DNA of 64,000 nucleotides, from positions 4,836,001 through 4,900,000 of the forward strand of contig NZ_JAPEOK010000001.1 of the NCBI RefSeq assembly GCF_026341515.1, in the 5' to 3' direction. The DNA comes from Streptomyces sp. NBC_00878 (GTDB lineage: Bacteria; Actinomycetota; Actinomycetes; Streptomycetales; Streptomycetaceae). Numbering within the stretch: the stretch's first letter is position 1; the number at the start of each line of letters is the position of its first letter. This document shows positions 18,401 through 35,510 of the stretch, piece after piece. The notes under the pieces were generated by a model. The model was not told where the DNA came from, did not search any database, and saw nothing but the letters and a program-made list of their open reading frames with translations. The position numbers were made by a program, and so were the translations under genes.

Positions 18401-18403
18401 CTA

Positions 18404-19673
18404 GTGCGTTGGCCACGAACGTTCGCCGGGTTTGATCAGGCGGCTTTGGGTCGTGGTCGGCCCCAGCGTTGCTGGCGTTCGCTGCGGACCTTGGCGCGTT
18501 CGCGGCGCTGGGCGGCCAGGACGTCGGGGTGACGGGCGTTGGCGTTGCGCCAGCGCAGGTAGTCCTGAAGCTTCCAGGACAGGACGGTGTGGTTGGGGTG
18601 GTTGGAGTTGCCCATGACGAAGTTGCGCAGGGGCCCGAACTGAGCCTCGATCGGGTTGGCCCACGACGCGCTCGTCGGCGTCAGGCACAACTCGACCTTG
18701 TTCTTCCTGGCCCAGGTCCGGATGGCCGGGGTCTTGTTCGCCGACAAATTGTCCATGATCACGTAGACGGGGGCGCCGTCGGGGCGGGCGGCCCGGATCG
18801 ACTTCAGCGCCGAGAGGCTGTGGTCACCGCCTTTGCGGCGGCGGGTCACGCCCCACAACTGGTCATCGCCGAGGGAATAGCAGCCGTGGAAGTACCGGAT
18901 ACCGTGAGTGCGGTGATAGGTGGCCGGCAGCCGGTCCGGTTTCTTCTCCCCGGCCCAGCCGGAGCCGTGGCAGGGCCGGATCGACAGCGGACCGAACTGG
19001 TCGAACGCGAAGCACCGGTCCAGGAAACGGCTGGTCACGTGCTCGATGCGGTCGAGTTTGGCGTCCTTGTCGGGATCCCTGGACTCCTTCCAGGTGCGGG
19101 TCCGCTGAAACGAGATCCCGTGCTCGCGCAGGATCTGCCGCAGTCGTTCCCGGCCGACCTTCACCGTCCGGACCCGGTTGCGGGCCAGGTACTCGGTGAG
19201 CTTGCGAAGGCTCCAGTGCGTGAACGGGCGTCCCAGCGTGACTGGGCGGGTCCTGGCCGTCGCGATGATGAACTCGCGTTCGTCATCGCTGATCAGGCGG
19301 GGACGGCCTCCCGCCCACCGAGGGTCCAGCGCGGCCAGGCCCTTCTCGTTGAACGCATGGATCACGTCCCGGACGGTGTCCTCGTGCGCGGCGGCCAGCC
19401 GTGCGATCGCCGCCACGGGAGTGCCCGACGCCGACGCCATGATGATCAGTGCCCGACGGACCCGTACGGACTCATGGCGGCCCCGCCGGACGATCTGCTG
19501 CAGTCTCTGGCCCTCTTGATCAGTCAACCGCCGTGCTCTGACCGGCTCTGCCATGCATGACCTCACTCCCCACGACAACCACGTCGCTATCGAGAGTGAG
19601 ACTGACAGACCCAGGCACCCCGGACATCGACCGGCGTATCACCAGACCCGGCGAACGTTCGTGGCCAACGCAC
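18404..19673 (-). mobile_element. IS630-family element, copy B
   Basis: A 1,270-bp mirror-image copy of element A, inserted at the TA of the CTAG between IS701 and the tniQ2 remnant. Its transposase is transcribed towards IS701, as is copy A's from the other side. The ends are GTGCGTTGGCC. Confidence 0.92.
18436..19554 (-). CDS. IS630-family transposase, copy B
   Basis: A 372-residue transposase with the same protein sequence as copy A and the same intact acidic triad (FAFDQFGPL, VIMDNLSANK, NPIEAQFG). The ATG is at 19554. Because both copies are full length and identical, their transposition was recent relative to the solo element at 3.4 kb. Confidence 0.93.
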   Translation of the reverse strand: MAEPVRARRLTDQEGQRLQQIVRRGRHESVRVRRALIIMASASGTPVAAIARLAAAHEDTVRDVIHAFNEKGLAALDPRWAGGRPRLISDDEREFIIATARTRPVTLGRPFTHWSLRKLTEYLARNRVRTVKVGRERLRQILREHGISFQRTRTWKESRDPDKDAKLDRIEHVTSRFLDRCFAFDQFGPLSIRPCHGSGWAGEKKPDRLPATYHRTHGIRYFHGCYSLGDDQLWGVTRRRKGGDHSLSALKSIRAARPDGAPVYVIMDNLSANKTPAIRTWARKNKVELCLTPTSASWANPIEAQFGPLRNFVMGNSNHPNHTVLSWKLQDYLRWRNANARHPDVLAAQRRERAKVRSERQQRWGRPRPKAA

Positions 19674-19787
19674 TAGCCCACAGGCTCGGCACGACACCCG
19701 CAGAGGTCTCCGTCCGCACCGGCCTGGTACCCCGCACCCGCCCGGGCCTGCCCACCCGGCTGCCGCTGGGGCTCCTGTACCACCTAG
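19674..19787 (+). pseudogene. tniQ2, second fragment
   Basis: After the IS630 end the plus strand reads AHRLGTTPAEVSVRTGL and ends GLLYHL at the CTAG used by IS982. It continues the N-terminal fragment now at 45340-45420 (ending GFVLRL): the CGC-CTA-GCC codons rejoin across CTAG. It parallels LRLAQHTGSSPAVIATRMGL of tniQ1. This piece lies inside the 25.5-kb inverted segment. Confidence 0.8.
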
Positions 19788-20789
19788 ATGAATGAGTCCA
19801 AGGGATGGCCTGCGGACATGAGACGAGGGCGTCCAATGTCAGTGTGTGAAGACAGACCTGGACACCCTCGCAACGGCACTCTATGCCCGGATCGACGACG
19901 AGTTGAAGGCTTCGCCGTGGCTGGCCCCGTACCGGCCCGCCGTCGGGATCGCGCCCACGCTCAGTGACGCCGAACTGGTCACCCTCGCAGTCACGTCGGC
20001 GCTGCTCGGTTACACCTCCGAGCGGCGCTGGCTGCGCCGCGTCGGGCGGGACTTCGGCCACCTCTTCCCCTACGTGCCCCAGCAGTCCGGCTACAACAAG
20101 CGGCTGCGTGCCGCGTCCTCGCTGCTCACCAGCATGATCCGGATCCTGGCCCGGGACACCTCGCTGTGGAGCGACGATGTGTGGCTGGTCGACTCCACCC
20201 CGGTCGGCTGCGGCTGCTCCCGCGAGACGGCGAAACGCTCGGACCTGGCAGGCTGGGCCGAGTACGGTTACTGCGCGTCGCACTCACGGTACTTCTGGGG
20301 GCTGCGGCTGCACCTGGTGTGCACACTCGGCGGGCTGCCGGTCCTGTTCGCCCTCACCGGCGCGAAGGCCGACGAGCGCGAGACGCTGCGCGACATGCTC
20401 GACACCGCACCCGATGCCGCAGCCGCCCGCCCCGGCCAGACGATCATCGGGGACAAGAACTACTACGGCCGCGAGTTCGAGCATGATCTTGCCGAGCGTC
20501 ACCTTCAGTTGCTGCGGCCGGCCCGCAAGGGAGAGGCCGAGCGGGCCGGGTCACACCTGTTCAAGCCCCTGCGGCAGGTCATCGAGTCGGTCAACCAGAC
20601 CCTCAAGGGACAGCTCGACCTGGAACGACACGGCGGCAAGAGCCCGGCGGGGGTAGCGGCCCGCGTCCTGTGCCGGATCCTCGCGCTCACCGCCGCGATC
20701 TGGCACAACGACAAGACCGGACAACCGATCAAGCGATCACTGACCGCCTACGATCACTGACCGCAACGACACCCCTCGGACTCATTCAT
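19788..20789 (+). mobile_element. IS982-family element inside tniQ2
   Basis: A 1,002-bp element with ends ATGAATGAGTCC and its inverse, flanked by CTAG on both sides (19784-19787 and 20790-20793). Removing it and one CTAG rejoins tniQ2 as YHL-DDEHIAGFARATRL in frame. Confidence 0.85.
19846..20760 (+). CDS. IS982-family transposase
   Basis: A DDE transposase of 304 residues with a GTG start. Typical IS982 blocks are LSDAELVTLAVTSALLGYTS near the N-terminus, VWLVDSTPVGCGCSRET with the first Asp, KADERETLRDML, and TIIGDKNYYGREFE with a further Asp. The C-terminal Glu lies in RQVIESVNQTLKGQLDLERH. The frame is intact and full length for the family (about 290-310 residues). It is carried within the tniQ2 remnant. 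Confidence 0.9.
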   Translation: MKTDLDTLATALYARIDDELKASPWLAPYRPAVGIAPTLSDAELVTLAVTSALLGYTSERRWLRRVGRDFGHLFPYVPQQSGYNKRLRAASSLLTSMIRILARDTSLWSDDVWLVDSTPVGCGCSRETAKRSDLAGWAEYGYCASHSRYFWGLRLHLVCTLGGLPVLFALTGAKADERETLRDMLDTAPDAAAARPGQTIIGDKNYYGREFEHDLAERHLQLLRPARKGEAERAGSHLFKPLRQVIESVNQTLKGQLDLERHGGKSPAGVAARVLCRILALTAAIWHNDKTGQPIKRSLTAYDH

Positions 20790-21977
20790 CTAGACGACGA
20801 ACACATAGCAGGCTTCGCCCGAGCCACCCGCCTGGCGCCCGGCGAGGTCAGCGGCATGCTCCTCGCCCCGCTCGGAGAGCGATACGGGCCACTGAACCCC
20901 GCCTTCACGCCACGCACTACCCCAACGCGGATGATCTACGACAACCCGTGGGTGCTGACCCGCTCCTCGCGCTACTGCCCCTTCTGCCTCACCGGGCACG
21001 GCGATGCGATCCAGGACCGCCACGGAGGCGCATGGCAGCGGCTGTGGCGTCTACCCGTGATTTTCCTCTGTCTCCGGCACCGACGACTCCTGTCGCACCG
21101 ATGCACCAGGTGCGGAACACTCGCGCAATTCGTCCGCACGGCAAACAGCATTGCGCGCCTGTCCGACGACTCGCTCCACCCAACACAGTGCCGCTTCACC
21201 GCACGATCGGCCTCGCACCGGCAGCCCACGGGGGCCTGTGGAGCCGACCTTGCCCGGCCAGATATCTCGCCCGGGCCTGATCCCGTCACCATGAACGTGC
21301 TGCTCCACGTCCAGCGCGAACTGGGGCACCTACTCGCGGCAGGAGGGCCAGCGACCACCATGAGCGCCGGGGCACCGGTCCCCGTTGCCCACTACTTCGC
21401 CGACCTGAGAGCTATCGTTGCCATGATCTTCCGGTCCTGGCCGGAAGCCCGCCCCTACGCCAGCACCCCCGTGCTGGTCGCCGCGCTCGACGCGGAACAT
21501 GCCGCCCGCGCCGCGCAGGCTGAGCCCCTGCTAAACAGCGCAGGCAAGAAGAAGACCTCCAAGCCCTACACCGTGCCGCCCGACGACTCCCTGGTCACGG
21601 GCGCGGTCCTGGACATCGCGGCGCAATTCCTTGGAACCCCGGACCGGCACGAAGCACGAGAGCGCCTGGCCCCGTTGGTGCTGCGCCTACGTGCCGCCGA
21701 CCGGGCACTCAGTACCTATTTGCGGCGCCCAGGCTGGATCTCGAAGCAGTTGCGGTCTGCCGTCGAGGACGAGTGGAAAGGTGCCAGTCGCCGAAGTAAG
21801 CCGTCGACATCCTCGCCCGCGTCCAGTCCAGCCGAGCCAAGGACTACGTGGCCGACTTCAACATGGCCCTGGCCCCCTGGCGGCGCGAGCCGGCTGTCCG
21901 CGACTCCATCCACCGCACACGCCAAGAACTCGGCGTCGCCGCCTGAAGCACCACCGTGCCTCGGCGGCGCACCGTGA
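20790..21977 (+). pseudogene. tniQ2, C-terminal fragment
   Basis: Resumes the TniQ family protein after IS982: DDEHIAGFARATRLAPGEVS and LLAPLGERYGPLNPAFTPRT. The zinc-binding segment follows (CPFCLTGHGDA, RLWRLPVIFLCLRHRRLL, HRCTRCGTLAQ), then a helical C-terminal region. TniQ proteins connect TnsC to the target site. Near 21795 the sequence becomes low-complexity Ser/Pro in this frame while another frame starts to look coding, so the native 3' end has probably been replaced. The gene is in four pieces counting the 5' part at 45.4 kb. Confidence 0.8.
21800..21946 (+). pseudogene. Unidentified gene 3' remnant
   Basis: In the frame different from tniQ2, 48 codons read as well-formed protein (ARVQSSRAKDYVADFNMALA, then REPAVRDSIHRTRQELGVAA) before TGA. 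There is no start and I do not recognise the family. It appears to be the tail of a gene fused onto truncated tniQ2. Confidence 0.4.
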
Positions 21978-22207
21978 CAGCGGAGCCCCCCTCGCCGAGG
22001 CTGGCCGGCAGGACGACCAGGCCGCTCGGATCGACCGGGAGCTTCGGCTTCGCACCTCAGGCCCCTTCTGCCCGTCGGATGAGATAAAGGGCAGACGGCC
22101 TGAATCGGGGCAAAGCGTCTGTGTTGTGGGCAGGGGCCGGACGGTAGGGTGAGAGCCGTTCTGTAGCGGATTCCGCGGCGCCGCAGTGCAGGTAGGGGAG
22201 GGTCGGC

Positions 22208-25200
22208 GTGGCTCTGGAGCCGAGCGTGCTCGAAAGCCGGTTCACGGACCTGGCTCTGGCGTCAGCCAATTTCGGATTCCTGCTTCCCCACGAACCGCTT
22301 CTTGTTCTTCACGGCGCATCCTGTGAGGCCCGCGCGGCTATCGCGCCCGCTGAAGCAGTGGTGGCGGCACGCCAGTTCGGTGAGGTTCTCGCCGCTGAGC
22401 TCGGCCACCGGGCCAGGGTGCGCCTGCCTACGGGCGATCAGCAGGCCCGTCTGGACCTCCTGTCCCGAGCCGGGATGCTTCCCGGGCCGGTTCTGGACGC
22501 GTTCAACGACCTTCACCGCCTCGACGGCGGCGCGCATGATGAGCGGGAGGTGGCCGCGCATCTGGTCGGGCGCTGCTTCGCGCTGGCCGTTTGGCTCTTC
22601 CGCGCCCTGACCGGCGACCCGGAACCGATGACCTTCGTCCACGCCTCAGCATCCGATCTGCAGGTTCTGGCGCAGCGGGTCGCTGCGCTGGAAGAGGACC
22701 TGCCCCGCCTGCGCCGCGAATTCGACCAGCGCGTCGCTCCCGCGCCCCTGGCGGTCGCCGAACGTGAACAGCTGATCGTCAGCGCACGCGATGCCGCCTA
22801 TGAACCGCTGCGCGAAGCCGATATTTCCGCGGAAGTGCAGCGCAGGCTCGCCAAGGCGGGATGGGACGTCCTCGGCGCTGGCGAGGAGTCTCAGCTCAAC
22901 CGCTCCCTGGGCTGCGTTCTGGTGCCCCGCCTGGGCGGAGGACTCCGCGCCGACATGCTGCTGACGGTCGGCGGACAGGTGGTCGGGATCGTCGAGTGCA
23001 AGCGGGACGGCATCGATCTCGCCGAGGCCATGGAGCAGACGGGCGCACTGGCGAAGGCCCCGGAGGGCTCCCTGCCGTGGCCTGTGTGGCGCTCGCCGCT
23101 GCCGTACCGGTATGTGAGCGATGGCCGCCGTCTTCTGTTCTGCGACGCAAATGACCCCGAATCCCACGCGCGCCTAGTCAGCGGCTTCCATCAGCCTCGC
23201 ACGCTGGCCCGCTGGCAGCGCGAAGCGGAGGCGGACGGTGTGGCGCCGACCTACCGGGCCCGCCAGGCCGCCTACCTGCAGCTGCAGGACGAGGGGTTCG
23301 ACCAGCTGCGCATTGCCCAGCGCGGGGCGGTGCGGGCCATCGAGCAGGCCCTCGCGGCCGGTCAGCGGCGCGCACTGGTGCAGATGGCCACCGGCTCCGG
23401 GGCGAGCTTCACCGGGGTATTCACCGCCTACCGGCAGCTCCACTACGCGCGCGCGGGCCGGATCCTGTTCGTGACCGACCGCAAGCTCACCGTGCACCAA
23501 CTGATCGCTCAGCTGCGCCAGTTCAGCATGCCGGACGGAGGGCGCCCTCTCGATGACGTGTACCACGTCCAGGAACTGACCGCGCACGGCCTGGCCCCGT
23601 CGGCTTCCGTGGCCGTGGCCACGGTGCAGCGTCTGTCGGCCATGCTCGCCGGCACGCCAGCACCCGAGGACGGATCCGAGAGCGTGGCGGCGTACGAGAC
23701 CGCCGAACGGCAGGCGCATTCCGATGCCACGCCCCTGGAAGTGTCCTACTGCGAGGCGCTGCCGCCCGACGCGTTCGATCTCATCATCGTCGACGACTGC
23801 CACCGCGCGCTGTACGGACAGCGACGTGCCCTTCTTGAATACTTCGACGCTCCCGTCGTCGGATTCAGCGCGACGCCGACCGCTACCGTGCTGGGATTCT
23901 TCAAGGGCAACCTGGTCGAGTCCTACAGCTATGAACAGGCCGTCGCCGACGGCGTCGCCGTGGACTACTCCGTCTACCAGATCCAGGTCGACGGCGACCG
24001 GCAGCCGGCGTTTGCCACCCCCGTCGACGCGGTCGGTGTGCAAGCCCGCAGCTCGCGCCGCGCCCGTTACGAGGACCTGGACGAGGAGCTGGCCTTCACC
24101 GTAGGGCAGGGTCCGGCAAGGGCTGTCCCCTCTGAGCGCCTGGCCAAGGTGGTGACGGCTTTCCGTAACGCGCTGCCGACCCTGTTCCCCGGCCGAATGC
24201 AGCACGGCGGCGGGCTCCTCGCGGTTCCCAAGACCGTGGTGCTGGCGCAGGACGGACTGCATGCGGACGAGGTCGTGGAGCGCGTCCGCGACGTGTTCGG
24301 CGCCGGGGACGTCTTCTGCCGGCGGATCACGCCGCGCGACGCTTATGCGGCGGAGCTGCTGCGGGAGTTCCGCACGACACCGCAGTTCCGGATCGCGGTC
24401 GTGACGGATCTGATCTCTGGGAACAGTGACATGCGGGTGATGGAGTGCCTGCTGATCCTGCGCGAGGTGCGCTCCGCCGCCTACTACGAGCAGCTGCTGG
24501 CCATGGGAACGCAGACCATCTCGTCCGCGGAGTTGCGCGCCGTCACCCCGGGAGCGGATGCCAAGGCGCAGCTCGTGGTCGTCGACGCGGCGGGCGCTTC
24601 GCGTCACCTCCAGCCGCTGGTGAACGTGACGGATGCATCCGGGCAGAGGGGACGGGCCGCCTTGGAGCGCCTGCTGCACCGAGCCACTGACGGCCGGGCG
24701 ACGCCGCAGGAGACAGCCGAACTCGCCATCCGGCTCGCCCGGCTTATCCCCGCGCTCAGTGACGCCGACGGCGCCGAGATCCGCAAGCTGGCGGGCCGGC
24801 CTCTGCAGGAGCTGGTGACCCGTCTCCTCGACTCGGTCGACTCGGATCACCTGGCATCGCTGCGCCGGGCGGGAGGCAAGAGAGCCGTCGAGGACGAGCG
24901 GCGGGAGGCCCTCTACCCGCTCACCGAGGACCTCCAACTCCAAGAGGTGCTGCTCGACCTGTACGACCGGCCGGCCCTTGCTCGGGGAACGACATCCGGC
25001 AGCCGGGGTCGCCGCCAAGACAAGACAGTGGGCCGGCGTCTGGCCGAGTTCGTCGAGCGGTCCGGACCCTTTAACTCCGCCCAGCTGTGGTGGATCGAGA
25101 AGATCGCGGATGTGGTGGCCACCGAGACGCGCTTCGACCCGGCGTATCTCGACAGCATCCCCTTCTCGGCGCGCGGCGGCACGGACGGCTTCCTTGACGC

Positions 25201-25258
25201 CTTCGGGCCCGACGCCGCGATCGACCTCCTGGACGAACTGCGCAGGGCCCTAGCGTGA
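22208..25258 (+). CDS. HsdR-like type I restriction subunit with degenerate helicase motifs
   Basis: Encodes 1,016 residues with HsdR architecture: an N-terminal DUF4145-like region, a PD-(D/E)xK nuclease (Asp249 in GLRADMLL; Glu263-Cys-Lys265 in GIVECKRDG), then an SF2 translocase. The nuclease core looks intact. The motor does not: the Walker A position reads QMATGSGASFTGV (residues 392-403), with Ala399 where Lys is invariant, and motif II reads VDDCH (528-532) instead of VDECH. GFSATPTATVLGFF (motif III region) is kept. The GTG start follows AGGGGAGGG. It is first of a five-gene operon with hsdS, hsdM, an ATPase and an HNH gene. It is either a dead motor or a repurposed subunit. Confidence 0.82.
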   Translation: MALEPSVLESRFTDLALASANFGFLLPHEPLLVLHGASCEARAAIAPAEAVVAARQFGEVLAAELGHRARVRLPTGDQQARLDLLSRAGMLPGPVLDAFNDLHRLDGGAHDEREVAAHLVGRCFALAVWLFRALTGDPEPMTFVHASASDLQVLAQRVAALEEDLPRLRREFDQRVAPAPLAVAEREQLIVSARDAAYEPLREADISAEVQRRLAKAGWDVLGAGEESQLNRSLGCVLVPRLGGGLRADMLLTVGGQVVGIVECKRDGIDLAEAMEQTGALAKAPEGSLPWPVWRSPLPYRYVSDGRRLLFCDANDPESHARLVSGFHQPRTLARWQREAEADGVAPTYRARQAAYLQLQDEGFDQLRIAQRGAVRAIEQALAAGQRRALVQMATGSGASFTGVFTAYRQLHYARAGRILFVTDRKLTVHQLIAQLRQFSMPDGGRPLDDVYHVQELTAHGLAPSASVAVATVQRLSAMLAGTPAPEDGSESVAAYETAERQAHSDATPLEVSYCEALPPDAFDLIIVDDCHRALYGQRRALLEYFDAPVVGFSATPTATVLGFFKGNLVESYSYEQAVADGVAVDYSVYQIQVDGDRQPAFATPVDAVGVQARSSRRARYEDLDEELAFTVGQGPARAVPSERLAKVVTAFRNALPTLFPGRMQHGGGLLAVPKTVVLAQDGLHADEVVERVRDVFGAGDVFCRRITPRDAYAAELLREFRTTPQFRIAVVTDLISGNSDMRVMECLLILREVRSAAYYEQLLAMGTQTISSAELRAVTPGADAKAQLVVVDAAGASRHLQPLVNVTDASGQRGRAALERLLHRATDGRATPQETAELAIRLARLIPALSDADGAEIRKLAGRPLQELVTRLLDSVDSDHLASLRRAGGKRAVEDERREALYPLTEDLQLQEVLLDLYDRPALARGTTSGSRGRRQDKTVGRRLAEFVERSGPFNSAQLWWIEKIADVVATETRFDPAYLDSIPFSARGGTDGFLDAFGPDAAIDLLDELRRALA

Positions 25259-26607
25259 TGAATGAGGTGCCTGCCGGCTGGAGGATCGTCCGGCTGGCCG
25301 ACGTGCTGAGTGAACCGTTGGTCAACGGCCGGTCCCCGCGCCCCGGCGAGGGCGGATTGCCCGTACTGCGCATGCCGGCGCTGCGGGCAGTCACCGTGGA
25401 CTTCACCCAGTCCAAGAGCAGCAACCCGCGGGACAACGGCCACGCGATACTGCTGGCCGACCACGGGGATGTGCTGGTCGGCCGGGTCAACGGCTCACAT
25501 TCCTTGGTCGGCGAGGGCGCGCTGGTGGACGGCCCCCCGGCCCCGACGGCCATCCCTGACACCATGATCCGAGTACGCGTACGCCCCGATGTCCTCGATC
25601 CGCGCTACCTCGCACACCTGTGGAAGTCGCCGGTCATGCGGCGCCAGATCGAGGCACGCGCCCGCCAGGGCGGCGCAGCGATCTGGCGGATCAACCAGCG
25701 TGATCTGGCCGCCGTCCTGCTGCCGCTGCCCCCTGTGGGGGAACAGCGCCGGATCGTCGGCCTGTTGGAGGACCACCTCGCCCGCATCGACGCCACCACG
25801 ATCCGCGCCCACAGCGCTCTCGACCAGGCCGACGTCCTTAGCCGCGCCCTGACCGCGCGGGCAGGGCGCGGCGCTCTCACCGATACCGCTCGGGTTCCCG
25901 CGGACCTGCCCCGGGTTGCCGGCGCAGGGGACGGGACACTGCCCGACCTGCCCGAACGCTGGCGGTGGACCCGCCTGCACGATGTCGCCGAGGTCACCCG
26001 CGGTATCACCCCACCCGGCACGCAGGAGTGGAATCCCGCCGATACGGACGTCTCCTGCCTGCGAGTCGCCAACGTGCAGCGCGGCCGCCTGGACCTGAAC
26101 GACGTCCGCACGATCCGGCTGCTCCCGTCACGGGCCGAGGCAGCCCGACTGCGGGCGGGTGATGTGCTGCTGACCGGCGGCGGATCGATCGACAGTCTGG
26201 GCCGCGGCTGGATCTGGGAGGACCAGCTGCCCCACTGCGTCCCCCACAGCCACGTCTTCCGTGTCCGGATCACCACCCATCAGCTCCACCCCGTCCTGCT
26301 GGCCTGGCACGCCAACGGCCTCGGCCGCCAGTGGTGCCACCGCAACGCCACCCAGAGTGCGGGGCTGGCATCCATCAGCCTGGCCAGGATCCGGCTCATG
26401 CCGGTGCCGGTTGCTCCCGTAGACGAGCAGCACCATCTGGTCGCGGTGGTCCAGGCACACACCGCGGCCCTGAACGCGGCCTGCGCTGCAGCCGAACGCG
26501 CTCTCGAGGTGGCCGGACGGCTACGGCGTAACCTCCTGGAACGCGCCTTCACCGGTCACCTGTCCCCTCCGCTCTCCCCGTCCGGGCGACAGGAGTATGT
26601 GCTGTGA
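25258..26607 (+). CDS. hsdS: Type I restriction-modification specificity subunit
   Basis: Recognises the two half-sites of the DNA target in a type I complex. It has 449 residues with two target-recognition domains. Repeat 1 begins NEVPAGWRIVRLADVL and closes with PPVGEQRRIVGLLEDHLARI. Repeat 2 begins LPERWRWTRLHDVAEVTRGI and closes with PVDEQHHLVAVVQAHTAALN. The ATG at 25258 overlaps the hsdR stop by one base (TGATG). The stop overlaps the hsdM GTG by four bases. Both TRDs look complete, so the complex should still have defined DNA specificity. Confidence 0.87.
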   Translation: MNEVPAGWRIVRLADVLSEPLVNGRSPRPGEGGLPVLRMPALRAVTVDFTQSKSSNPRDNGHAILLADHGDVLVGRVNGSHSLVGEGALVDGPPAPTAIPDTMIRVRVRPDVLDPRYLAHLWKSPVMRRQIEARARQGGAAIWRINQRDLAAVLLPLPPVGEQRRIVGLLEDHLARIDATTIRAHSALDQADVLSRALTARAGRGALTDTARVPADLPRVAGAGDGTLPDLPERWRWTRLHDVAEVTRGITPPGTQEWNPADTDVSCLRVANVQRGRLDLNDVRTIRLLPSRAEAARLRAGDVLLTGGGSIDSLGRGWIWEDQLPHCVPHSHVFRVRITTHQLHPVLLAWHANGLGRQWCHRNATQSAGLASISLARIRLMPVPVAPVDEQHHLVAVVQAHTAALNAACAAAERALEVAGRLRRNLLERAFTGHLSPPLSPSGRQEYVL

Positions 26608-28103
26608 ACCCCACCGTCTCCTCCCGCCCCGGACACGACCAGGCCCTGGTGGACCGGCTGTGGAACTACGCCAACGTGCTGCGCGACAACGGCACCTCGG
26701 GCCTGGAGCTCATCGAGCAGCTCTCCAGCCTGATCGTCCTCAAGCGCGCCCATGAACAACGCCAACGCCCCCTCAACGGGCAGGACATCCTCGGCTTCGA
26801 CGCATGGGAGCAGCTCACCTCGACCGAGCGCGACTACCTCATCCCGGCGTACGAGCAGATCCTGGGCCAGCTCGCCGCCCGGCCCGGAACGCTCGGGCTG
26901 CTCTTCCGGCGGGCACAAAACCGCATCCCGGACCCTGCCCTCCTGCACCGCTTGATCGTCGACGTGGTGGACCGCTACCAGTGGTCCTCAGCCGACATCG
27001 GCGCTGTCTTCGAGGCGCTGCTGGCCCGCATGAGCACAGACACGAAGACCGGCGCCGGCCAGTACTTCACGCCCCGGCCGCTGATCGAGGCGATCGTGCA
27101 GTGCATGCAGCCCGGCATCGACGACACGGTCTCCGACCCGGCCTGCGGCACCGGTGGTTTCCTGATCAAAGCCTTCGACTACATGGTCGACCACTTTCCT
27201 TCAGGTGTCACCGCGGCTCAGCGCAAGCGGCTCGGCCAGGGGGCCTTCTTCGGCACCGAACTCGTCGACGCCACCGCGCGGCTGGCCACGACGAACCTCG
27301 TCCTGCACGGCGTCACCCGGGCCGACGAGACCCACCCGTGCATCACCGTCGGGGACGCGCTGGCCCGCCCACCGGCGCGGCGGGCGACGCTGGTGCTCAC
27401 CAACCCTCCGTTCGGGCGCCGCTCCACCAGCGAGGAGCCCTACCGGGAGGACTTCTGGACCCTCACCACCAGCCGGCAGCTCAACTTCCTCCAGCACATC
27501 CACAGCCTGCTGGAGACCGACGGCCGCGCCGCTGTCGTGGTGCCCGACAGTGTGCTGTTCGAAGGCGGGCCGGGTGAGTTGATCCGGCAGCGACTGCTGT
27601 CCGCGTGCGACGTCCACACCCTGCTGCGGCTTCCCACGGGCATCTTCTACGCGGGCGGTCTCAAGGCCAGCGTCCTGTTCTTCGACAAGCCCGAACCGCG
27701 CCCCGATGGCAGCCCGTCCACGACACGGTTGTGGGTGTACGACCTGCGCTCCCCGCACACGACGACGGCCAAGCCCATGACACCAGCCGGTCCCGACTAC
27801 AGCGACTTCGTGTCCGCCTACCGGCCCGGCCGACCCCGCAGCGAACGAGTCGAGATTCCCCGCTTTCGCTCCTTCGCCGTCCAGGACCTGCTCGCCCGGC
27901 CCGGCGTCAACCTGGACGTTCACGTCGCCGAACCCCCGCCCGGGCCCTTCGCACTGGAAGAGCCCGAGGCCGACCTGTACCGCATGGCCCAGGAGATCAC
28001 CGCTGAACTGGGCGCCGCCCTGGCCGAGTTCGCCTCCCTGACTGAAGCACTGCGCCCCTACGGTGTGCACGCGGACGGCCCGGATCGTGAGGCGGAGCGG
28101 TGA
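26604..28103 (+). CDS. hsdM: Type I restriction-modification N6-adenine methyltransferase subunit
   Basis: Methylates adenine in the bipartite site using SAM. It has 499 residues from a GTG overlapping the hsdS stop (GTGA). The HsdM N-terminal helical domain is followed by TGAGQYFTPRPLIEAIV, motif I DPACGTGGFLIKAF and motif IV LVLTNPPFGRRS. All catalytic motifs are intact, unlike those of the partner HsdR-like helicase. The 3' end is followed 34 bp later by the start of the ATPase gene. Confidence 0.92.
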   Translation: MNPTVSSRPGHDQALVDRLWNYANVLRDNGTSGLELIEQLSSLIVLKRAHEQRQRPLNGQDILGFDAWEQLTSTERDYLIPAYEQILGQLAARPGTLGLLFRRAQNRIPDPALLHRLIVDVVDRYQWSSADIGAVFEALLARMSTDTKTGAGQYFTPRPLIEAIVQCMQPGIDDTVSDPACGTGGFLIKAFDYMVDHFPSGVTAAQRKRLGQGAFFGTELVDATARLATTNLVLHGVTRADETHPCITVGDALARPPARRATLVLTNPPFGRRSTSEEPYREDFWTLTTSRQLNFLQHIHSLLETDGRAAVVVPDSVLFEGGPGELIRQRLLSACDVHTLLRLPTGIFYAGGLKASVLFFDKPEPRPDGSPSTTRLWVYDLRSPHTTTAKPMTPAGPDYSDFVSAYRPGRPRSERVEIPRFRSFAVQDLLARPGVNLDVHVAEPPPGPFALEEPEADLYRMAQEITAELGAALAEFASLTEALRPYGVHADGPDREAER

Positions 28104-28137
28104 CGGCGACCAGGAGCACCTTGACCGGGGGGATGCC

Positions 28138-29778
28138 GTGCGGCTGCTGCGACTGAGACTTCCCTCCTACCGGGGCCTGCGTCACTTCGAGCTGGACCTC
28201 ACCGGCGCCCTCGATGGCGGCCATGCCATTGCCACCCTGATCGGCCCCAACGGCGGCGGAAAGTCCCGGGCCCTGCACGCGCTCGCCGAGATCTTCGGCG
28301 CCCTGCACCGGCCGGGCCGCCGTGCGGCCTTCGCCTTCGAACTCGACTACGAGGTCCACGACAGGACGGTCCGGGTCGTTCAGACCTCCCCCGACACCTC
28401 ACCCGAGCTGACCGTGGACACCTCCCTGGGCCGGCCGATACGCGCGGCCCGCGCAGTGTGGACGCAGCATCTGCCCGATCACGTCTTCGGCTACCAGGCG
28501 CACGCCCAGGCTCCCTGGACCAGCGAGTTCGACCAGCACCGCCGCTTCGCCGCCCGCCGCGTCGGCCAATGGCGCCGGCAGTGGATGACGGACTTCGACC
28601 AGTGGCGCGCACACCACGCCCCGAACGAAGGCGAGCTGTGGACCGAGCAGCTCACCCTGCCCATCAACTGCCCCCTGTACACACCGGTGTTCCTGTGTAC
28701 GCCCGCGCATCTGCCGCTGCTGCTCCTCGCGCAGACCACTCACTGGGCCGACTCGTTCGGCACCTACCTGCGCCGCCATTCCTACCTGCAGCGGGTGGCC
28801 TCCGCGGTCCTGCGGATCCGAGCGCCACGCACCGCACGCGCCCCGCACCTGGCTGCCCTCCCGTACTGGGGCCTGGGCGGGCCTGCCCGCACCCTGTTCG
28901 CGGCCGCCGCCGAATCGGGGCGGTTCGGTCTCATCCCCGACGCAGACCCGGTGGACGGGGCCGGTAGCCCGGCCGACGGGTTCCAGATTGTCCTGGGCAC
29001 CGCGGAGGACGTCCGCGCCTTCCGTAACCTCTTCGACAGTGACCTGTCGATGTTCGGCCTGCTGGCCACCCTGCTGGATGCCGGCTACCTCACCGTCGAC
29101 GTCCGCCTGGACAAACCCGGCGCGCTCACCGTCGGCCTGGACGATCTGAGCTCGGGGGAGCAGCAGCTCCTGACCATTTTGGGCCTGCTGAGACTACAGC
29201 GGGCGCATGAGTCGCTGTTCCTTCTGGATGAACCCGACTCCCACTTCCACCCCGAGTGGAGCCGACGCTGGTACTCCTCCGTGCGCAGCGTGCTGGGACC
29301 GCATCAGCACTCGCAGTTCCTCACCGCCACCCACGAACCGCTCCTGGTGTCCAACATGACCCGCGAGCAGATCCGCGTCGTCACCACCGACGCGGAGGGC
29401 CAGGCCAGCGCGGTGATACCCCGGGCCAACCCGCGCGGACAAGGCGCCGGCGGCCTGCTGACCACCGACCTGTTCGGCCTGCCCACCCAACTCGATGAGC
29501 ACACCCAGGAACTGATCGACCGCCAGTACGCGCTGCTTCCCGAGGCGGCTGGCGACCCGGTCAAACAGGCTGCACTGCGCGATGTCACCGCCCAGCTGGA
29601 GACCATGGACTTTCCCAACTCCGACCGTGATCCGCTCGTGGCGGCCTTCCTCGCCGAGCTCCACCGCAGACGCCTCGCGCTCCTCGAGGCCGCCCACGGC
29701 CCCAATCCGCCCTCGCCCGAACGACTGCAGGCCTTGGTCGCCGAGCTGTTCCACGAGCGCTTCTCGTCGGTGATCTGA
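28138..29778 (+). CDS. ABC-type (AAA_21/PtuA-like) ATPase in the restriction operon
   Basis: Encodes 546 residues. Walker A IGPNGGGKSRALHALAEIFG is at residues 35-54, the ABC signature LSSGEQQLLTILGLLRLQRA near 337-356, and Walker B LFLLDEPDSHFHPEW immediately after. The D-loop and H-motif (FLTATHEPLLVSNM) are also present. Between them is a long insertion. This is the SMC/RecF-like ATPase type found in Septu (PtuA), Gabija-like and other defence systems. I prefer the GTG at 28138 because GGGGGGA precedes it. The stop is 5 bp before the HNH gene, so it is a probable ATPase-nuclease pair. Confidence 0.8.
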   Translation: MRLLRLRLPSYRGLRHFELDLTGALDGGHAIATLIGPNGGGKSRALHALAEIFGALHRPGRRAAFAFELDYEVHDRTVRVVQTSPDTSPELTVDTSLGRPIRAARAVWTQHLPDHVFGYQAHAQAPWTSEFDQHRRFAARRVGQWRRQWMTDFDQWRAHHAPNEGELWTEQLTLPINCPLYTPVFLCTPAHLPLLLLAQTTHWADSFGTYLRRHSYLQRVASAVLRIRAPRTARAPHLAALPYWGLGGPARTLFAAAAESGRFGLIPDADPVDGAGSPADGFQIVLGTAEDVRAFRNLFDSDLSMFGLLATLLDAGYLTVDVRLDKPGALTVGLDDLSSGEQQLLTILGLLRLQRAHESLFLLDEPDSHFHPEWSRRWYSSVRSVLGPHQHSQFLTATHEPLLVSNMTREQIRVVTTDAEGQASAVIPRANPRGQGAGGLLTTDLFGLPTQLDEHTQELIDRQYALLPEAAGDPVKQAALRDVTAQLETMDFPNSDRDPLVAAFLAELHRRRLALLEAAHGPNPPSPERLQALVAELFHERFSSVI

Positions 29779-29783
29779 CGCCG

Positions 29784-30908
29784 ATGAGACACGTCAACAT
29801 GCAAGGGCTCACCGCCCCGCCGGCCTGGGCAGCCAAGGCCAAACGCACCCTCGACGCGGTCAGGGCCGCCGTCGCTGCCGGCACGGAGCGTGAATTCAAT
29901 TCGCACTGGGCCGAGGACGCCGTACGCGACTTGCTCCTCGGTCTCGTCGGCGTCAAGTGCTGGTACTGCGAGACCCTCATCGTGCGCGCGGACATCACCG
30001 TCGACCACTTCCGGCCGAAATCCGAAGTACTCGACGTGCCTGGCCACCCGGGCTACTGGTGGCTGGCTTACGAGGTGTCGAACTACCGCATCGCCTGCAA
30101 GCATTGCAACAGCGGCGGAGCCCGCTACAACGGTGTCCGGGAAGGCCGCGCCAAGGGCAGCCAGTTCCCGCTCATAGGCGGAACCCGCGCCCGCACATCA
30201 GTCGACGACCTGAACAACGAACAGCCGCTGCTCCTGGACCCGGCTCGCCCCAGCGACCCCGACCTGCTCGGCTTCGACTTCGCTGGCTACGCCCGGCGCA
30301 GCAGCACCCCTTACTCGCCGGCCGAAACGAACCGCGGTCTGTGCCGCGCCGACGAAACCATACGGATTCTGGCGCTCAACGACTCCCACCTCGTCCCGCT
30401 CCGCGGCCGCCTCATGCGGGAGGTCACCGTACTCGCCCGCTACGGGGACAAGACCGACATCCAGCAGCTGATCGACGACAAGGTGGGACCCAAGGCGCCC
30501 TACAGTTCGGCAGCCTCCATGGCCCTGGCCCTGCAGCGCGCCGTCGACCAGCCGGCCGCCGCGCCCGCCCCGGCCGCAACGACGGCCGGCGCCGCGCCCA
30601 CCATCGACCCGGCACGCTCCCGAGTCGACCTGCACGACCTGCTGCAACATCTGGACCCGGACGACCTGAAGGCCGGTATCACCCTCACCGGCCGGCACGA
30701 GAAGAAGGTCCACCGGGCAGTCCTGAACCACGAGGGCCAGATCGACGTCGGGGGCCGCCCCTGGCGCACCCCGACCACCGCCGCCCGAGTCGCCACCGGC
30801 AGCAACAAGATCGACGGCTGGGATTTCTGGTGGCTGACCATCGCCGGGGTGGGGCAGACCCTCGCTGAGTTCCGCGCCACGCACCACCCGCCCACCGCAC
30901 CGACGTGA
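29784..30908 (+). CDS. HNH endonuclease (TIGR02646/PtuB-like)
   Basis: Encodes 374 residues. The zinc and catalytic core is GVKCWYCETLIVRADITVDH followed by FRPKS, YWWLAYEVSNYRIACKHCNS: Cys59-x2-Cys62, Asp74-His75, Asn100 and Cys105-x2-Cys108. This ordering is that of the TIGR02646/PtuB family of HNH nucleases that partner an ABC-type ATPase. The C-terminal third is a separate region with Ala/Pro-rich linker and no known match. It closes the operon; transcription then meets the convergent STAND gene about 100 bp on. It is the likely effector nuclease. Confidence 0.8.
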   Translation: MRHVNMQGLTAPPAWAAKAKRTLDAVRAAVAAGTEREFNSHWAEDAVRDLLLGLVGVKCWYCETLIVRADITVDHFRPKSEVLDVPGHPGYWWLAYEVSNYRIACKHCNSGGARYNGVREGRAKGSQFPLIGGTRARTSVDDLNNEQPLLLDPARPSDPDLLGFDFAGYARRSSTPYSPAETNRGLCRADETIRILALNDSHLVPLRGRLMREVTVLARYGDKTDIQQLIDDKVGPKAPYSSAASMALALQRAVDQPAAAPAPAATTAGAAPTIDPARSRVDLHDLLQHLDPDDLKAGITLTGRHEKKVHRAVLNHEGQIDVGGRPWRTPTTAARVATGSNKIDGWDFWWLTIAGVGQTLAEFRATHHPPTAPT

Positions 30909-31010
30909 GACACGGGTACGGCGGTGAGGACGATGACGCGGTCCGGCCGGTATCTACGCTCTGTCCGGTAGCCGGCGTGGCTCAGCAGTGCTGGCAGGTG
31001 ACGGGCCTTG

Positions 31011-34000
31011 TCACCGCTTGCGCGGCTTGCGGCCCTGCTGGCGGCGGGTGCGCTTCGGAGGACGGGCACCGTCCAATGCCACAAATGCGGCGGTCAGCAG
31101 TCCGGAGGACGCGGCGGTGTGGAAATGCTCCGCGAAGGCCTGCGGCGAAGCGAACGCGGGGCGCCGCTCGGCAGGTTCCTGGAGCATGAACCCGAACCCG
31201 TAGAGCACCAGGACGCGTTTGCTGGTGGCGGCCGCCTGAAGCCAGCGCGGCGGCAGGCTGGTCTGGGCGCGGGCCCAGACGGTCCCCTTCTGGTCGCGCA
31301 GTTCCATGCGGTTGCCGCGCTGGTACAGCCGCCAGTCAAGAAGGGCGGGGATGGACATGGCCTCGGGGATGATGCGTCGAAAGCCTGCGCCGCTGATGCG
31401 GTGGACCTGGTACTCCATGGCGGGCGCCCCGGTCAGGGGCATGGCGGTGAGCATGTAACGCGGCTCCATCAGCACGATCGGTGTCCTGGGGGGCCGCTCG
31501 CCGTCCTTGCTGTCACCGTCGGTGTGTGGATTACGGATGATGCCGACCGACTGGAATGGGGGCTGGCCGCTGAGGGTGCAATGGACATCGGCCAGCGCCG
31601 CCTCGGCGGTCTGGCGGAGGTAGGTGCTCTGCTCGGGGAGCATGCGCTCCAGGTCGAAAACCTCCTCGCCCCTGGCGTGAACATGGTCGTGGATCTGCTT
31701 GCTGGTTATGGTCTTGACCCGTTCCAGCAGGGCCCGAAACACCTGCTCCCACGGCGCGGCCGCATCGATGCCGCCGGCATCGAAGCACTGGTCGCGGAGT
31801 TCGACGATCAGAGTGACGAAGTCGTCCGTGTCATGGTGCGCGGCGGCGTCGACCGCCTTGAGGAGCGTGAACCGGGCCCGCTCGTGCTCGCGCAGTGCGG
31901 CATCGAGATGCTCGATGCCGCACTCCGTCAGCACCCGGCGCAGGAGCGCTGCGGCGGTCTCGTCGGTGGACTCGATCCACACCAGGGCGCAGGCGAGACC
32001 GACGTTGTGGACGAAGTCCTGGACGGAGGAGCGATACAGCGACCGCGGTCCGGTGTAGGGGAGGAACGTCTCGAACTCCGCTTCGGCCTCCTGCCAGCGG
32101 CGCTGGTAGACGAGCGCCTCGATGAGGTGGCGTGTGACCTCCGCGGCGTGGAAGGAGCGTGCGTGGCTGTGATGGGTGTGGGGAAGCTGGCTGCGGGCGA
32201 GGTGCTCGACGCCCTGCAGATCGCCGTCGCCGAACAGGTGGGCGACCTGTTCGGCCTCGAGCCGCTCGGCGACCGCCGCGGTCTTCGGCAGCCGGTCGGC
32301 CAGCGTGGTGAACGCTTCGAGCGCGGGGCGCAGGCGCGGATCGTCGGGGTGGGTGCTGGCAAGGTTGCGCAGGACGATGAGCGCCTGCGTGGCCAGGAGC
32401 GCCGCGGCCGGCTCGCCATCCGGTTCACCAGGCAGCTGCTCGATGTACTCCACCAGCGGCGACAGCAGATTCACGGCCTGCTCCACCGGATCGGAGGTGT
32501 CATGGTGCGCGTACATCTGGGCCAGTGAGATGCGGGTCTGCGCGATTAGCAGCGTGTTGGGGTCGGCCAGGTCCTGAAGCCATTCCAGTTCCAGGTGCAG
32601 CAGCCGCATCGCCTGGTCCAGCTGCCCCTGGATGTACTCGAATCCGGCGAGGTTGCCGATCAGGAGCGCGGTGTCGTTGTCCTTGACCTCGCTGGCTTGG
32701 ATATGGCTCGCCAGGGCCGCCGCGTGCGGGGCGATCTCCCAGGCCAGGTCGCCGTCGCCGAATTCGAGGGCCGCGCCCAGCCAGCGCGCGGTGTGGAAGG
32801 CGCTGCGTGAGAGCGCCGTTTCCACCTGGCCTCCCTGGGTGAGGCGCTGGCGCAGCAGATGCTGCAGGACGGTGTTCATCGACACGGTGTCGTCGCTGTC
32901 GGCGAACCCAGAGATGCGGGAGGTGAGCGGCTCGTCGTAGCGGACGAAGGACACCTGGATCAGTGCCCGGATGATCTCCCGTACCGGCACGGTGGTTTCG
33001 TCCAGAACGACGGCTTCCTTGCCTGCGGGCACGATGCCCGGCGGGATGAGCGCGCAGGCCATCGCCAGGTGCACCGGAATGCGCTGGGCGGCGAAGTTGC
33101 ACAGGAATCCGAGGACTTCGTGTACCTGGTTCGGTAACTCGCCGTCGTCGGCGGTGTTGTGGGCCAGGCGTTCCAGGCTCAGTTCGACGGTGGCGGCCAG
33201 GGTCCGCGGATAGCCGGAGGGTTTGGATCTCTTGTCGGCCAGGGCCCGATCGAGCAGAAGGGTACGGAATTGCTTCAGACGCTCGACAGGGATCCGGCAG
33301 GTACGCATGTATCCGCAGGCCAGCTCGATGGCCAGGGGCCATCCCTCCAGTGTTTCGGCCAGAGCGTCCAGGTCTTCCCGCCAGGTGGCCGTCGCCTTCT
33401 CGTCCAGGTCGAGGCGGCGGGTGAGGAGTTCCACGGCCTGGGCGTGGTCCATCCGGGACAGGACGACGCAGGGCATGGCGTGCCAGCCGGCGCTGTCGAT
33501 GGACGTGAACAACACATCGCCGCGGCCCAGCCGAGGGATCCACGCATCGACGTCGGCTGGGGCGGCGTCGTCGAAGACGAGCAGCCAGCGTCCGGGCAGC
33601 GCCGCGAGCAGTTCGTGGACTTGTTCGCGAAGGTAGGGCGTGCTCGCGGAGGCCGGGCTGTCGTGCGTGTGCCCGTTCAGGTGCCCCCAGATGCGCCTAA
33701 AGGAGCCGGCCAGGGCCTCATCGGTGGCCGCCTCAGCCCACAGGACGAGGTCGTAGCGGTCGGCGTGTGCGGCGACGTACGCGGCGGCCGTGCTCGATTT
33801 CCCGATCCCCGACAGTCCGGACAGAACACAGGAGTTGACCGACCGATCGCGCGGGTCGGCCGGGGCCAGGGCCTTGGTGATATCTGCGAGCAGGCCCGGC
33901 CGGGGGATGTCGGGCACGGGCGCGAGCGGGCCGAACACACTGCCCCAGTCCTGGCGTCCCAACGCGCGCACCAGCACGTCGTCCTCCACCAGCGCGGCGT

Positions 34001-34682: not shown

Positions 34683-34900
34683 CGAACCCCCAGTTCGTCC
34701 AACGCCGCTCAGATCAAAGGAGGTTAGCGACTGCGTCTGACAATCACCCCTGTCGTCGCGGGCGCGCACAACGCGGCCGGTCGGCACAGGGTCCGACACC
34801 CCGATGATGCCTTTTAACCCCCGCTACGGCAGCGTAAGCGGGTCGGCCGCGCTGGAACCCGCCCATGCAGATCCCTGTCACGGCCGCGATGCGGCGGTGC

Positions 34901-35347
34901 TCACAGCGATTCGGTCCACTCGCCGGGCTCTTCGAGCACATACGAGGCGTCGGTCGCCGGCGAGTCGCGCGCTGTCCGGCCGTGCGGCGCAGGGGGCTCC
35001 GGGACGGTCGCCGCCTGCGGAATCGCGACGGCGCAGGCGGCGCAGACGTCGGCGAGGTGCCAGGTCCGGCCCTGGTCCGCCCGGATCAGCACCAGCCGCA
35101 GGGCGCCGTTGCACGGGCCCTGGCGCTGGTGCCAGACGCAGGACCGCTCGCGGCACTGACACGTACGTAGATGCGGCTCCAGGCCGGATTCCCGTACGTG
35201 GCGCGCCAGATGCCGCCGCATCTCCTCCCCTCGCGGGACACCCGCGGCAGGGCCCGGTCCGGGGCAGGCGCTGCACATCAGCAGGGGCCGCCCGGCCGGA
35301 CTGCTGATGGTGACCGTCCAGGCGCGCGAAGGCAGGGCGGTGGTCAT
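34901..35347 (-). CDS. Small Cys-rich, probably zinc-binding protein
   Basis: Encodes 148 residues from the ATG at 35347, preceded by GGAGGG. Several paired cysteines (MCSACPGPG; TCQCRERSCVWHQRQGPC; VCAACAVAI) suggest one or two zinc sites. I do not recognise the family, though similar small proteins sit beside XRE regulators in Streptomyces. It diverges from the XRE gene at 35511 across a region with three copies of a 17-bp element, so the pair is probably co-regulated. Confidence 0.65.
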   Translation of the reverse strand: MTTALPSRAWTVTISSPAGRPLLMCSACPGPGPAAGVPRGEEMRRHLARHVRESGLEPHLRTCQCRERSCVWHQRQGPCNGALRLVLIRADQGRTWHLADVCAACAVAIPQAATVPEPPAPHGRTARDSPATDASYVLEEPGEWTESL

Positions 35348-35413
35348 CGGATCCCTCCAAGCCGTCATCAGATCGTCGCTGGCCTTCGACCCGGGCGACG
35401 CTCGGAGAGGGTA

Positions 35414-35496
35414 GTGCAGACCTCTGCCCTCACGGGGCGTCTCGGTATCGCCACAAATAGGGCAGAGGTCTGCACTGTCAGGGCAGGGGTCTGCAC
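35414..35496. promoter_or_regulatory. Three 17-bp operator copies between divergent genes
   Basis: AGGGCAGAGGTCTGCAC occurs at 35459-35475, as AGGGCAGGGGTCTGCAC at 35480-35496, and inverted as GTGCAGACCTCTGCCCT at 35414-35430. The two direct copies are 21 bp apart, two helical turns. They lie between the Zn-protein gene and the XRE gene and are most simply XRE binding sites. Confidence 0.75.
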
Positions 35497-35510
35497 CGTC
35501 CGATGGTGAG

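What the first reader, a model, noticed from the sequence alone, without database searches (positions are those of the whole stretch)
22208..30908. Type I restriction operon with an inactivated HsdR motor and an added ATPase-HNH pair: candidate new defence system
hsdR, hsdS, hsdM, an ABC-type ATPase and a PtuB-like HNH nuclease lie in one tight operon. HsdR keeps its PD-(D/E)xK nuclease (D249, E263, K265), but the Walker A Lys is Ala (TGSGAS) and motif II is DDCH. HsdS and HsdM look intact. One reading is that the methylation-sensing complex no longer translocates and that the ATPase-HNH pair supplies the effector step, a merger of type I modification with a Septu-like module. The frame is intact over 1,016 codons, which argues against simple decay.
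Basis: partly seen in the sequence, partly recalled or inferred. Interest (0 to 1): 0.85.

Follow-up and report, generated by a model that had tools for sequence, protein, structure and literature searches.

The report
Disarmed restriction enzyme coupled to Septu
A Streptomyces-type five-gene antiviral cassette in which a classic DNA-cutting restriction enzyme has lost its motor, and in many relatives also its DNA-marking residue, while an attached toxin-like pair stays intact, suggesting the old enzyme now acts as a sensor for that pair.

Summary
Five tightly packed genes (22208-30908) encode HsdR, HsdS, HsdM, PtuA and PtuB. This state is conserved: 37 of 37 clusters of its clade lost the Walker A Lys, motif II Glu and both motif VI Arg, while 37 of 37 keep the nuclease triad; 48 of 48 outgroup clusters are intact there. 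In 394 genomes of the window's family, 6 of 6 dead-motor HsdRs but 2 of 34 with a Walker A Lys adjoin PtuAB. A second lineage lost the motor independently and also lost nuclease residues, with HsdS fused to HsdM. HsdM lost the NPPF Asn in 19 of 21 clusters paired with motor-degraded HsdRs, though not in this window. PtuA and PtuB motifs are intact in 13 of 13 cassettes. Best reading: a type I complex repurposed as a non-translocating sensor or guard for a Septu effector, comparable to EcoprrI-PrrC, Ronin and retron-PtuAB. The mechanism is inferred, not shown. New variant of a known kind.

The parts
22208..25258 (+). HsdR-like subunit, PD-(D/E)xK residues kept, SF2 motor motifs I, II, V, VI degraded
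   Evidence: Pfam ResIII/SWI2_SNF2/EcoEI_R_C; residues; AF2 model pLDDT 81 whose best PDB matches are HsdR structures 3h1t and EcoR124I, at low TM-score
22937..23008 (+). HsdR nuclease region with D249, E263, K265
   Evidence: conserved 37 of 37 in the clade
23381..23416 (+). HsdR Walker A region QMATGSGASFTG, Lys replaced by Ala399
23780..23815 (+). HsdR motif II region LIIVDDCHRALY (Glu to Asp530)
24482..24520 (+). HsdR motif VI region YYEQLLAMGTQTI (both Arg lost: M766, Q769)
25255..26607 (+). HsdS specificity subunit
   Evidence: Methylase_S, PADLOC Specificity_I 220 bits
26604..28103 (+). HsdM, N6 methyltransferase; DPACGTGGF and NPPF present in this copy
   Evidence: N6_Mtase 184 bits; motifs
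28138..29778 (+). PtuA, ABC-type ATPase (ORF open from 28063; GTG 28138 likelier start)
   Evidence: PADLOC PDLC00294 1006.9 bits; Walker A, signature, Walker B, H-switch intact; start
29784..30908 (+). PtuB, HNH nuclease with C-terminal RAMA domain
   Evidence: PADLOC PDLC00327 562 bits; HNH motifs; RAMA 268-366
22136..30909 (+). unit of nucleotide homology shared with other genomes: the five genes and about 70 bases upstream
   Evidence: blastn blocks: L042 22136-30892, L003 22138-30909, L043 22183-30909 (plus a separate block 34992-35766), L002 21802-30944; L001 is similar further out on both sides

Best explanation
The five genes are one defence unit. HsdR, HsdS and HsdM still assemble a type I-like complex on DNA, but the complex no longer translocates. 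It serves as the sensor and restraint of PtuAB, whose HNH nuclease, gated by the PtuA ATPase, is the main effector (on tRNA or phage DNA, by analogy with characterised PtuAB). The likeliest trigger is the phage's interference with the type I-like complex (an anti-restriction protein or DNA mimic) or an altered DNA-bound state of it. In this window HsdM may still methylate, and the HsdR nuclease may still cut as a second, non-translocating effector. Shown here: gene content, conservation, linkage, repeated loss of RMS catalytic residues, intact PtuAB motifs, purifying selection. Inferred: complex formation, restraint of PtuAB, trigger, target.
For: Motor loss in 37 of 37 clusters of the clade, 48 of 48 outgroup clusters intact. 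The 40 HsdR rows from 394 genomes were all read: 6 of 6 dead-motor rows have PtuAB next door, 2 of 34 rows with a Walker A Lys do (PtuA sought at E <= 1e-50). Trees of HsdR and PtuA suggest that PtuAB linkage precedes motor loss and that the Walker A Lys was lost at least twice. PtuA and PtuB motifs intact in 13 of 13 cassettes; PtuA dN/dS lowest (0.09-0.24), HsdR 0.23-0.39 over eight pairs. The cassette moves as a unit. Precedents: retron-Eco7 PtuAB stops growth when expressed without its retron partner (PMC11555353, passages); PtuA Walker and PtuB HNH residues are required in a Septu (PMC13096335, passages); EcoprrI restrains PrrC, and Ronin and PARIS sense anti-restriction proteins (PMC12409349, passages).
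Against: No interaction, toxicity or phage data for this cassette. The HsdR D-E-K triad is invariant in the clade (37 of 37), which a purely structural HsdR would not need. This window's HsdM has kept or regained NPPF, so it may be an active methyltransferase. A distant plasmid locus has M-S-PtuA-PtuB with no HsdR annotated nearby, so HsdR is not part of every such unit. One relative (L067) keeps only broken PtuA/PtuB and no R, S, M.
Confidence: 0.5

Rival explanations
1. DNA-triggered two-nuclease system: M-S recognises unmethylated sites, R clamps there without translocating, and site binding switches on PtuAB (and the R nuclease) against the phage DNA.
Against: 19 of 21 HsdM rows paired with a motor-degraded HsdR lack the NPPF Asn, so self-marking by their own HsdM is doubtful; one lineage lost HsdR nuclease residues too.
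Confidence: 0.22
2. HsdR (and in relatives HsdM) is simply decaying; PtuAB is an ordinary Septu pair that happens to sit beside a dying restriction operon.
For: Motor and methylase residues are lost stepwise; one genome (L067) has only broken PtuA/PtuB remnants with neither R, S nor M.
Against: Frames intact over long divergence; dN/dS 0.23-0.39 for HsdR over eight dead-lineage pairs; nuclease triad 37 of 37; R, S, M, A and B all present in 11 of 11 dead-motor cassettes read, two of which were found through PtuA; fused S-M ORF open in 5 of 5 lineage-3 loci.
Confidence: 0.1
3. The HsdR ATPase still works with unusual motifs, and the system is an ordinary type I enzyme plus an accessory PtuAB.
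For: Motif III (SATP) and the Q-motif Gln are kept in this window; 28 of 37 have Arg, a basic residue, at the Walker A position; lineage 3 keeps the second motif VI Arg, and L044 keeps motif II Glu.
Against: Motifs I, II and VI changed together in 37 of 37, with Ala at the Walker A position in this window; Walker A Lys is also lost in 5 of 5 loci of a second lineage.
Confidence: 0.08
4. Modification-dependent reading: PtuB's RAMA domain senses methylated phage or host DNA and the RMS complex positions PtuAB on it (type IV-like).
For: RAMA-type C-terminus recognisable in 13 of 13 PtuB, weakest in L048; above Pfam's cut-off in L047.
Against: Three of the four PtuB scored are under the cut-off; no methyl-binding data for a bacterial RAMA domain seen here; the plasmid relative's PtuB is only 287 aa (not scanned against Pfam).
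Confidence: 0.1

Closest known systems
EcoprrI-PrrC (type IC R-M with embedded anticodon nuclease)
   Same: Type I genes in one operon with a linked nuclease effector; PrrC is held by the R-M enzyme and activated when phage Stp inhibits it (PMC3874165 and PMC12409349, passages)
   Different: EcoprrI is an active restriction enzyme; here the motor is dead by sequence, and the effector is the two-protein PtuAB, not PrrC
Ronin (R-M-like system that lost its restriction part and carries toxin RonA)
   Same: Modification subunits proposed to sense anti-restriction proteins and to activate a toxin (PMC12409349, passage)
   Different: Here HsdR is kept as a protein but disarmed, HsdM catalysis is often lost as well, and the effector is an ATPase-HNH pair
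Septu (PtuA-PtuB) and retron Ec78/Eco7 PtuAB
   Same: PtuA and PtuB homologues with intact Walker, signature and HNH motifs
   Different: Inside an R-S-M-A-B cassette in 10 of 11 genomes with a close PtuA; PtuB has an extra RAMA domain; no reverse transcriptase among the five genes
Classical type I R-M (nearest HsdR families of the same bacterial family)
   Same: HsdR, HsdS, HsdM domain make-up and order R-S-M
   Different: Motor motifs I, II, V, VI lost; PtuAB attached
[quoted passage not shown]
   Same: The association of such ATPases with restriction loci is recognised in the family name (97.4 bits, cut-off 300) and cited as previously reported in PMC12839542 (passage)
   Different: PtuA here is far below the TIGR04435 cut-off; no mention of a disarmed type I RMS complex in the passages read

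Membership tests
Type I restriction-modification | HsdR, HsdS and HsdM homologues in one operon | tested here: met
Type I restriction-modification | HsdR SF2 motor motifs (I Lys, II Glu, VI Arg) for ATP-driven translocation | tested here: not met
   A399, D530, M766, Q769
Type I restriction-modification | HsdR PD-(D/E)xK nuclease residues | tested here: met
   D249, E263, K265; Lys lost in 5 of 5 lineage-3 loci and Glu and Lys lost in P0042/P0045
Type I restriction-modification | HsdM catalytic NPPF and AdoMet motif | tested here: met
   this window NPPF, DPACGTGG; not met in 27 of the 45 nearest HsdM rows
Type I restriction-modification | Methylation of a bipartite site and cleavage of unmethylated DNA | not testable with these tools
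   needs long-read methylation data and a restriction assay
Septu | PtuA (ABC ATPase) and PtuB (HNH) homologues, adjacent | tested here: met
   PDLC00294 1006.9 bits, PDLC00327 562 bits
Septu | Catalytic Walker A/B and HNH residues | tested here: met
   13 of 13 cassettes; their requirement from PMC13096335 (passage)
Septu | Works as a stand-alone two-gene system | tested here: inconclusive
   of 11 genomes with a close PtuA, 10 have R-S-M-A-B and 1 (L067) is a remnant without R, S, M; function untested
EcoprrI-PrrC type guard | R-M operon linked to an ATPase-nuclease effector | tested here: met
EcoprrI-PrrC type guard | Effector is PrrC | tested here: not met
   PADLOC and NCBIfam give PtuA and PtuB
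EcoprrI-PrrC type guard | R-M complex restrains the effector; anti-restriction protein releases it | not testable with these tools
   needs toxicity and trigger experiments
Ronin | R-M-like locus without restriction component and with RonA | tested here: not met
   HsdR present; PtuAB attached; RonA itself was not searched for
MADS | MAD2, MAD3, MAD5 models above cut-off | tested here: not met
   MADS2 74.6 of 720, MADS3 30.9 of 420, MADS5 36.8 of 400 bits

The most novel reading that the evidence does not exclude
A restriction enzyme has been disarmed, at least twice, into a decoy: an RMS complex kept as bait that phage anti-restriction proteins or DNA mimics must touch, with PtuAB as the trap. 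Motor, methylase and (in some lineages) nuclease were discarded step by step while the complex and the trap stayed; in this window's own subclade the methylase Asn may have come back.
Probability: 0.3. Interest if true: 0.9.

Novelty: new variant of a known kind. Interest (0 to 1): 0.72.

Why it matters
It gives a family in which successive stages are present in sequenced genomes: intact type I plus PtuAB; motor partly lost; motor lost; motor and methylase residue lost; motor, nuclease and methylase residues lost with HsdS and HsdM fused. That makes it directly testable whether a restriction enzyme can evolve into a sensor for an abortive effector, and what the sensor detects. It also suggests that annotation pipelines may count such a locus as both type I R-M and Septu where there is probably one system.

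Tried and rejected
PtuB structure: an alignment of four sequences gave mean pLDDT 43; only the RAMA part (about 300-360) is usable, so no claim on the HNH domain rests on it. HsdR fold search: the best matches are HsdR structures but with low TM-scores and large rmsd, so it only confirms the family. The phylum-wide PtuA search found only the window's own genome among 396 at E <= 1e-30, so spread outside the family rests on named protein hits (Sphaerisporangium, Nocardia). The plasmid collection gave one distant hit. The tree used 47 of the 97 proteins plus 24 locus rows; its 'WA' label was off by one residue, and corrected counts are, where P0093 and P0095 were left out as partial. The HsdM tree left out partial P0183. 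L023 did not appear and was read separately. The Fisher p of 7e-6 ignores relatedness and is not used as a probability. L047-L048 dN/dS is saturated, and dN/dS is by a simple counting method. In the second HsdR of L061 the Walker A region is itself unusual (PATGKT) but was counted as having the Lys. Papers PMC7544218 and PMC12318543 are not held. Literature searches that could have shown a description of this cassette; none of the listings showed one, but only listings and passages were read, lists were capped, and most subscription papers are not held. Rejected: MADS membership (scores far below cut-off).
Full report
What is there. The window lies on the largest contig of an 11.1 Mb genome; the nearest named proteins are from Streptomyces, so the unnamed family searched below is taken to be Streptomycetaceae. 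Between 22208 and 30908 five genes follow one another on the + strand: HsdR (1016 aa), HsdS (450), HsdM (499), an ABC-type ATPase and an HNH protein (374). Pfam, PADLOC and NCBIfam identify HsdR, HsdS and HsdM as type I subunits and the last two as PtuA and PtuB of the Septu group (PDLC00294 1006.9 bits, PDLC00327 562 bits). PtuA probably starts at GTG 28138, not 28063. PtuB has a C-terminal RAMA domain (31.1 bits, slightly under Pfam's cut-off of 35.2; three relatives 35.1, 31.8 and 47.5).

Beyond that, motif VI reads AMGTQ in place of GRGxR and motif V SGNSDM in place of TGTDV. Motif names are standard SF2 knowledge (recalled).

Is it conserved? A protein search listed 97 homologues (only the 7986 candidates sharing most words were scored). 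Two partial ones (P0093, P0095) were dropped. Of the other 95, 37 clusters around the window have lost the Walker A Lys (R 28, A 8, Q 1), motif II Glu (D in 37) and both motif VI Arg in 37 of 37, yet keep the nuclease D, E, K in 37 of 37. Three clusters (P0034, P0037, P0038) keep the Walker A Lys but have lost the second motif VI Arg; two of them also have Asn for the first motif II Asp, and one has lost the nuclease Lys. Two (P0042, P0045) keep the Walker A Lys but have lost motif II Glu and the nuclease Glu and Lys. Five clusters related to the intact PtuAB-linked loci and 48 outgroup clusters are intact at all of these positions; two of the 48 have Ile at one motif V position. A coordinated, conserved loss next to a conserved nuclease is not random decay.

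Linkage. The HsdR search over 394 genomes of the window's family gave 40 rows in 35 genomes at E <= 1e-50; the PtuA search over the same genomes gave 8 genomes at E <= 1e-50, each within about 6 kb of an HsdR row. All 40 HsdR rows were read: 6 have a dead motor and all 6 adjoin PtuAB; 34 keep the Walker A Lys and 2 of them (L047, L048) adjoin PtuAB. More distant PtuA would be missed by that threshold; in 13 sister loci (L049-L061) tblastn with the window's proteins finds no PtuA or PtuB within 19 kb. A genus-wide search (392 genomes, partly the same) added two dead-motor cassettes (G987, G1011) and one remnant with broken PtuA/PtuB and no R, S, M (G914). Matching contig lengths tie 12 HsdR clusters (one of them, P0023, is L003) to PtuA clusters, including P0034, P0037, P0038 and P0042 and the intact P0044; for the megabase contigs this shows the same contig, not adjacency.

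The unit moves as one. Nucleotide homology of the window with L042, L003 and L043 begins at 22136-22183 and ends at 30892-30909 (L043 has one further block at 34992-35766); L002 starts about 330 bases further upstream, and L001 is similar well beyond the cassette on both sides. Four lineage-3 loci match L044 from 7544-7579 to 16324 only.

History. On HsdR trees (71 rows, 34 rows, motif columns left out and a mixture model) and on a PtuA tree (64 rows) the motor-degraded lineages form one group, split into lineage 3 (L044, L045, L046, L065, L066) and the rest, with the intact PtuAB-linked group outside it. This suggests that the linkage is older than the motor loss. Since P0034, P0037, P0038 and P0042 keep the Walker A Lys but group with the window's clade, lineage 3 (Lys to Arg in 5 of 5) lost it independently. 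Lineage 3 has also lost the first motif VI Arg and the nuclease Lys in 5 of 5, keeps the second motif VI Arg, and L044 keeps motif II Glu; HsdS and HsdM are fused in one ORF of 967-970 aa in 5 of 5 (Pfam check on L044). The first HsdR tree warned of a long-branch join between lineage 3 and the core; the PtuA tree and the second HsdR tree, without that warning, agree.

The methylase. In the 45 nearest HsdM rows, 18 have NPPF and 27 have TPPF (17), APPF (7) or SPPF (3); the next 75 listed rows have NPPF in 75 of 75 (120 of 7998 hits were listed). Lineage 3 has DPPL or DPPM in 5 of 5. The window, L001, L002 and L042 have NPPF, nested among T/A/S forms: either regained by a small codon change or lost many times in parallel. 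NPPF as the m6A catalytic motif is from PMC9613975 (passages); that T or A in place of N abolishes activity is recalled knowledge of N6-adenine methyltransferases, not tested here, and SPP/DPP forms occur in other methylases (recalled).

What does not decay. In 13 cassettes (the remnant L067 left out) PtuA keeps Walker A, the signature LSSGEQQ/LSAGEQQ, Walker B and the H-switch, and PtuB keeps CWYCE, DHxRPK and CxxCNS. dN/dS is lowest in PtuA (0.09-0.24) and still well under 1 in HsdR (0.23-0.39), HsdM (0.16-0.44) and PtuB (0.28-0.46) over eight pairs within dead-motor lineages. So R and M are constrained although catalytic residues are gone.

How it probably works. PtuAB of retron-Eco7 stops growth when expressed without its retron partner and depletes tRNA-Tyr (PMC11555353, passages); a two-gene Septu cleaves tRNA-Tyr on T6 infection and needs PtuA Walker and PtuB HNH residues (PMC13096335, passages). 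[quoted passage not shown] EcoprrI holds PrrC until phage Stp inhibits it, and Ronin and PARIS also sense anti-restriction proteins (PMC3874165, PMC12409349, passages). By analogy the disarmed RMS complex is most likely the sensor and restraint of PtuAB. Against a purely silent complex stands the invariant nuclease triad of the window's clade: there HsdR may be a second, non-translocating nuclease. A DNA-triggered version, in which unmethylated sites switch on PtuAB, remains open for this window, whose HsdM looks intact.

A distant relative supports the modular view: on a Pseudoalteromonas plasmid HsdM (NPPF), HsdS, PtuA and PtuB stand together with no HsdR annotated in 17.9 kb or in the 14.2 kb before the record's origin, in a gene table that is incomplete by design.

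Novelty. The association of such ATPases with restriction loci is not new (TIGR04435 name; PMC12839542 passage), nor is the guard principle. I saw no description of a conserved, stepwise disarmed type I complex tied to PtuAB in the listings. I rate it a new variant of a known kind.

Noticed in passing
window 31011-34799 (-) and 35993-38668 (-): Two large NTPase proteins next to the cassette: a 1262-aa FxSxx-TPR-like protein (144 bits, cut-off 300) and an 891-aa trypsin plus weak nSTAND protein, suggesting a defence island.
   Followed up: no
window 17070-21977: Three DDE transposase genes and a TniQ-domain gene directly upstream of the cassette.
   Followed up: no
L068:1091-6885 (Pseudoalteromonas plasmid NZ_CP032092.1): M-S-PtuA-PtuB with no HsdR annotated nearby, close to a TnsA C-terminal-domain gene; its PtuB has altered HNH cysteines.
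   Followed up: partly
L044, L045, L046, L065, L066: HsdS and HsdM fused in one ORF of 967-970 aa in the lineage with degraded motor, nuclease and methylase motifs.
   Followed up: partly
L049, L053, L055, L057, L058: Sister type I loci with intact HsdR show two separate hsdM matches, possibly the two-M kind of type I system.
   Followed up: no
L061 second HsdR, L075, L076: HsdR proteins with a Walker A Lys but no recognisable D...ExK at the aligned place, the reverse of the window's case.
   Followed up: no
L067:13124-15038: Remnant of the cassette: truncated PtuA and PtuB split over two frames, no R, S or M match.
   Followed up: no
window 26604-28103, motif IV: The window subclade's NPPF is nested among TPPF/SPPF/APPF relatives, so the methylase Asn may have been regained.
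   Followed up: partly
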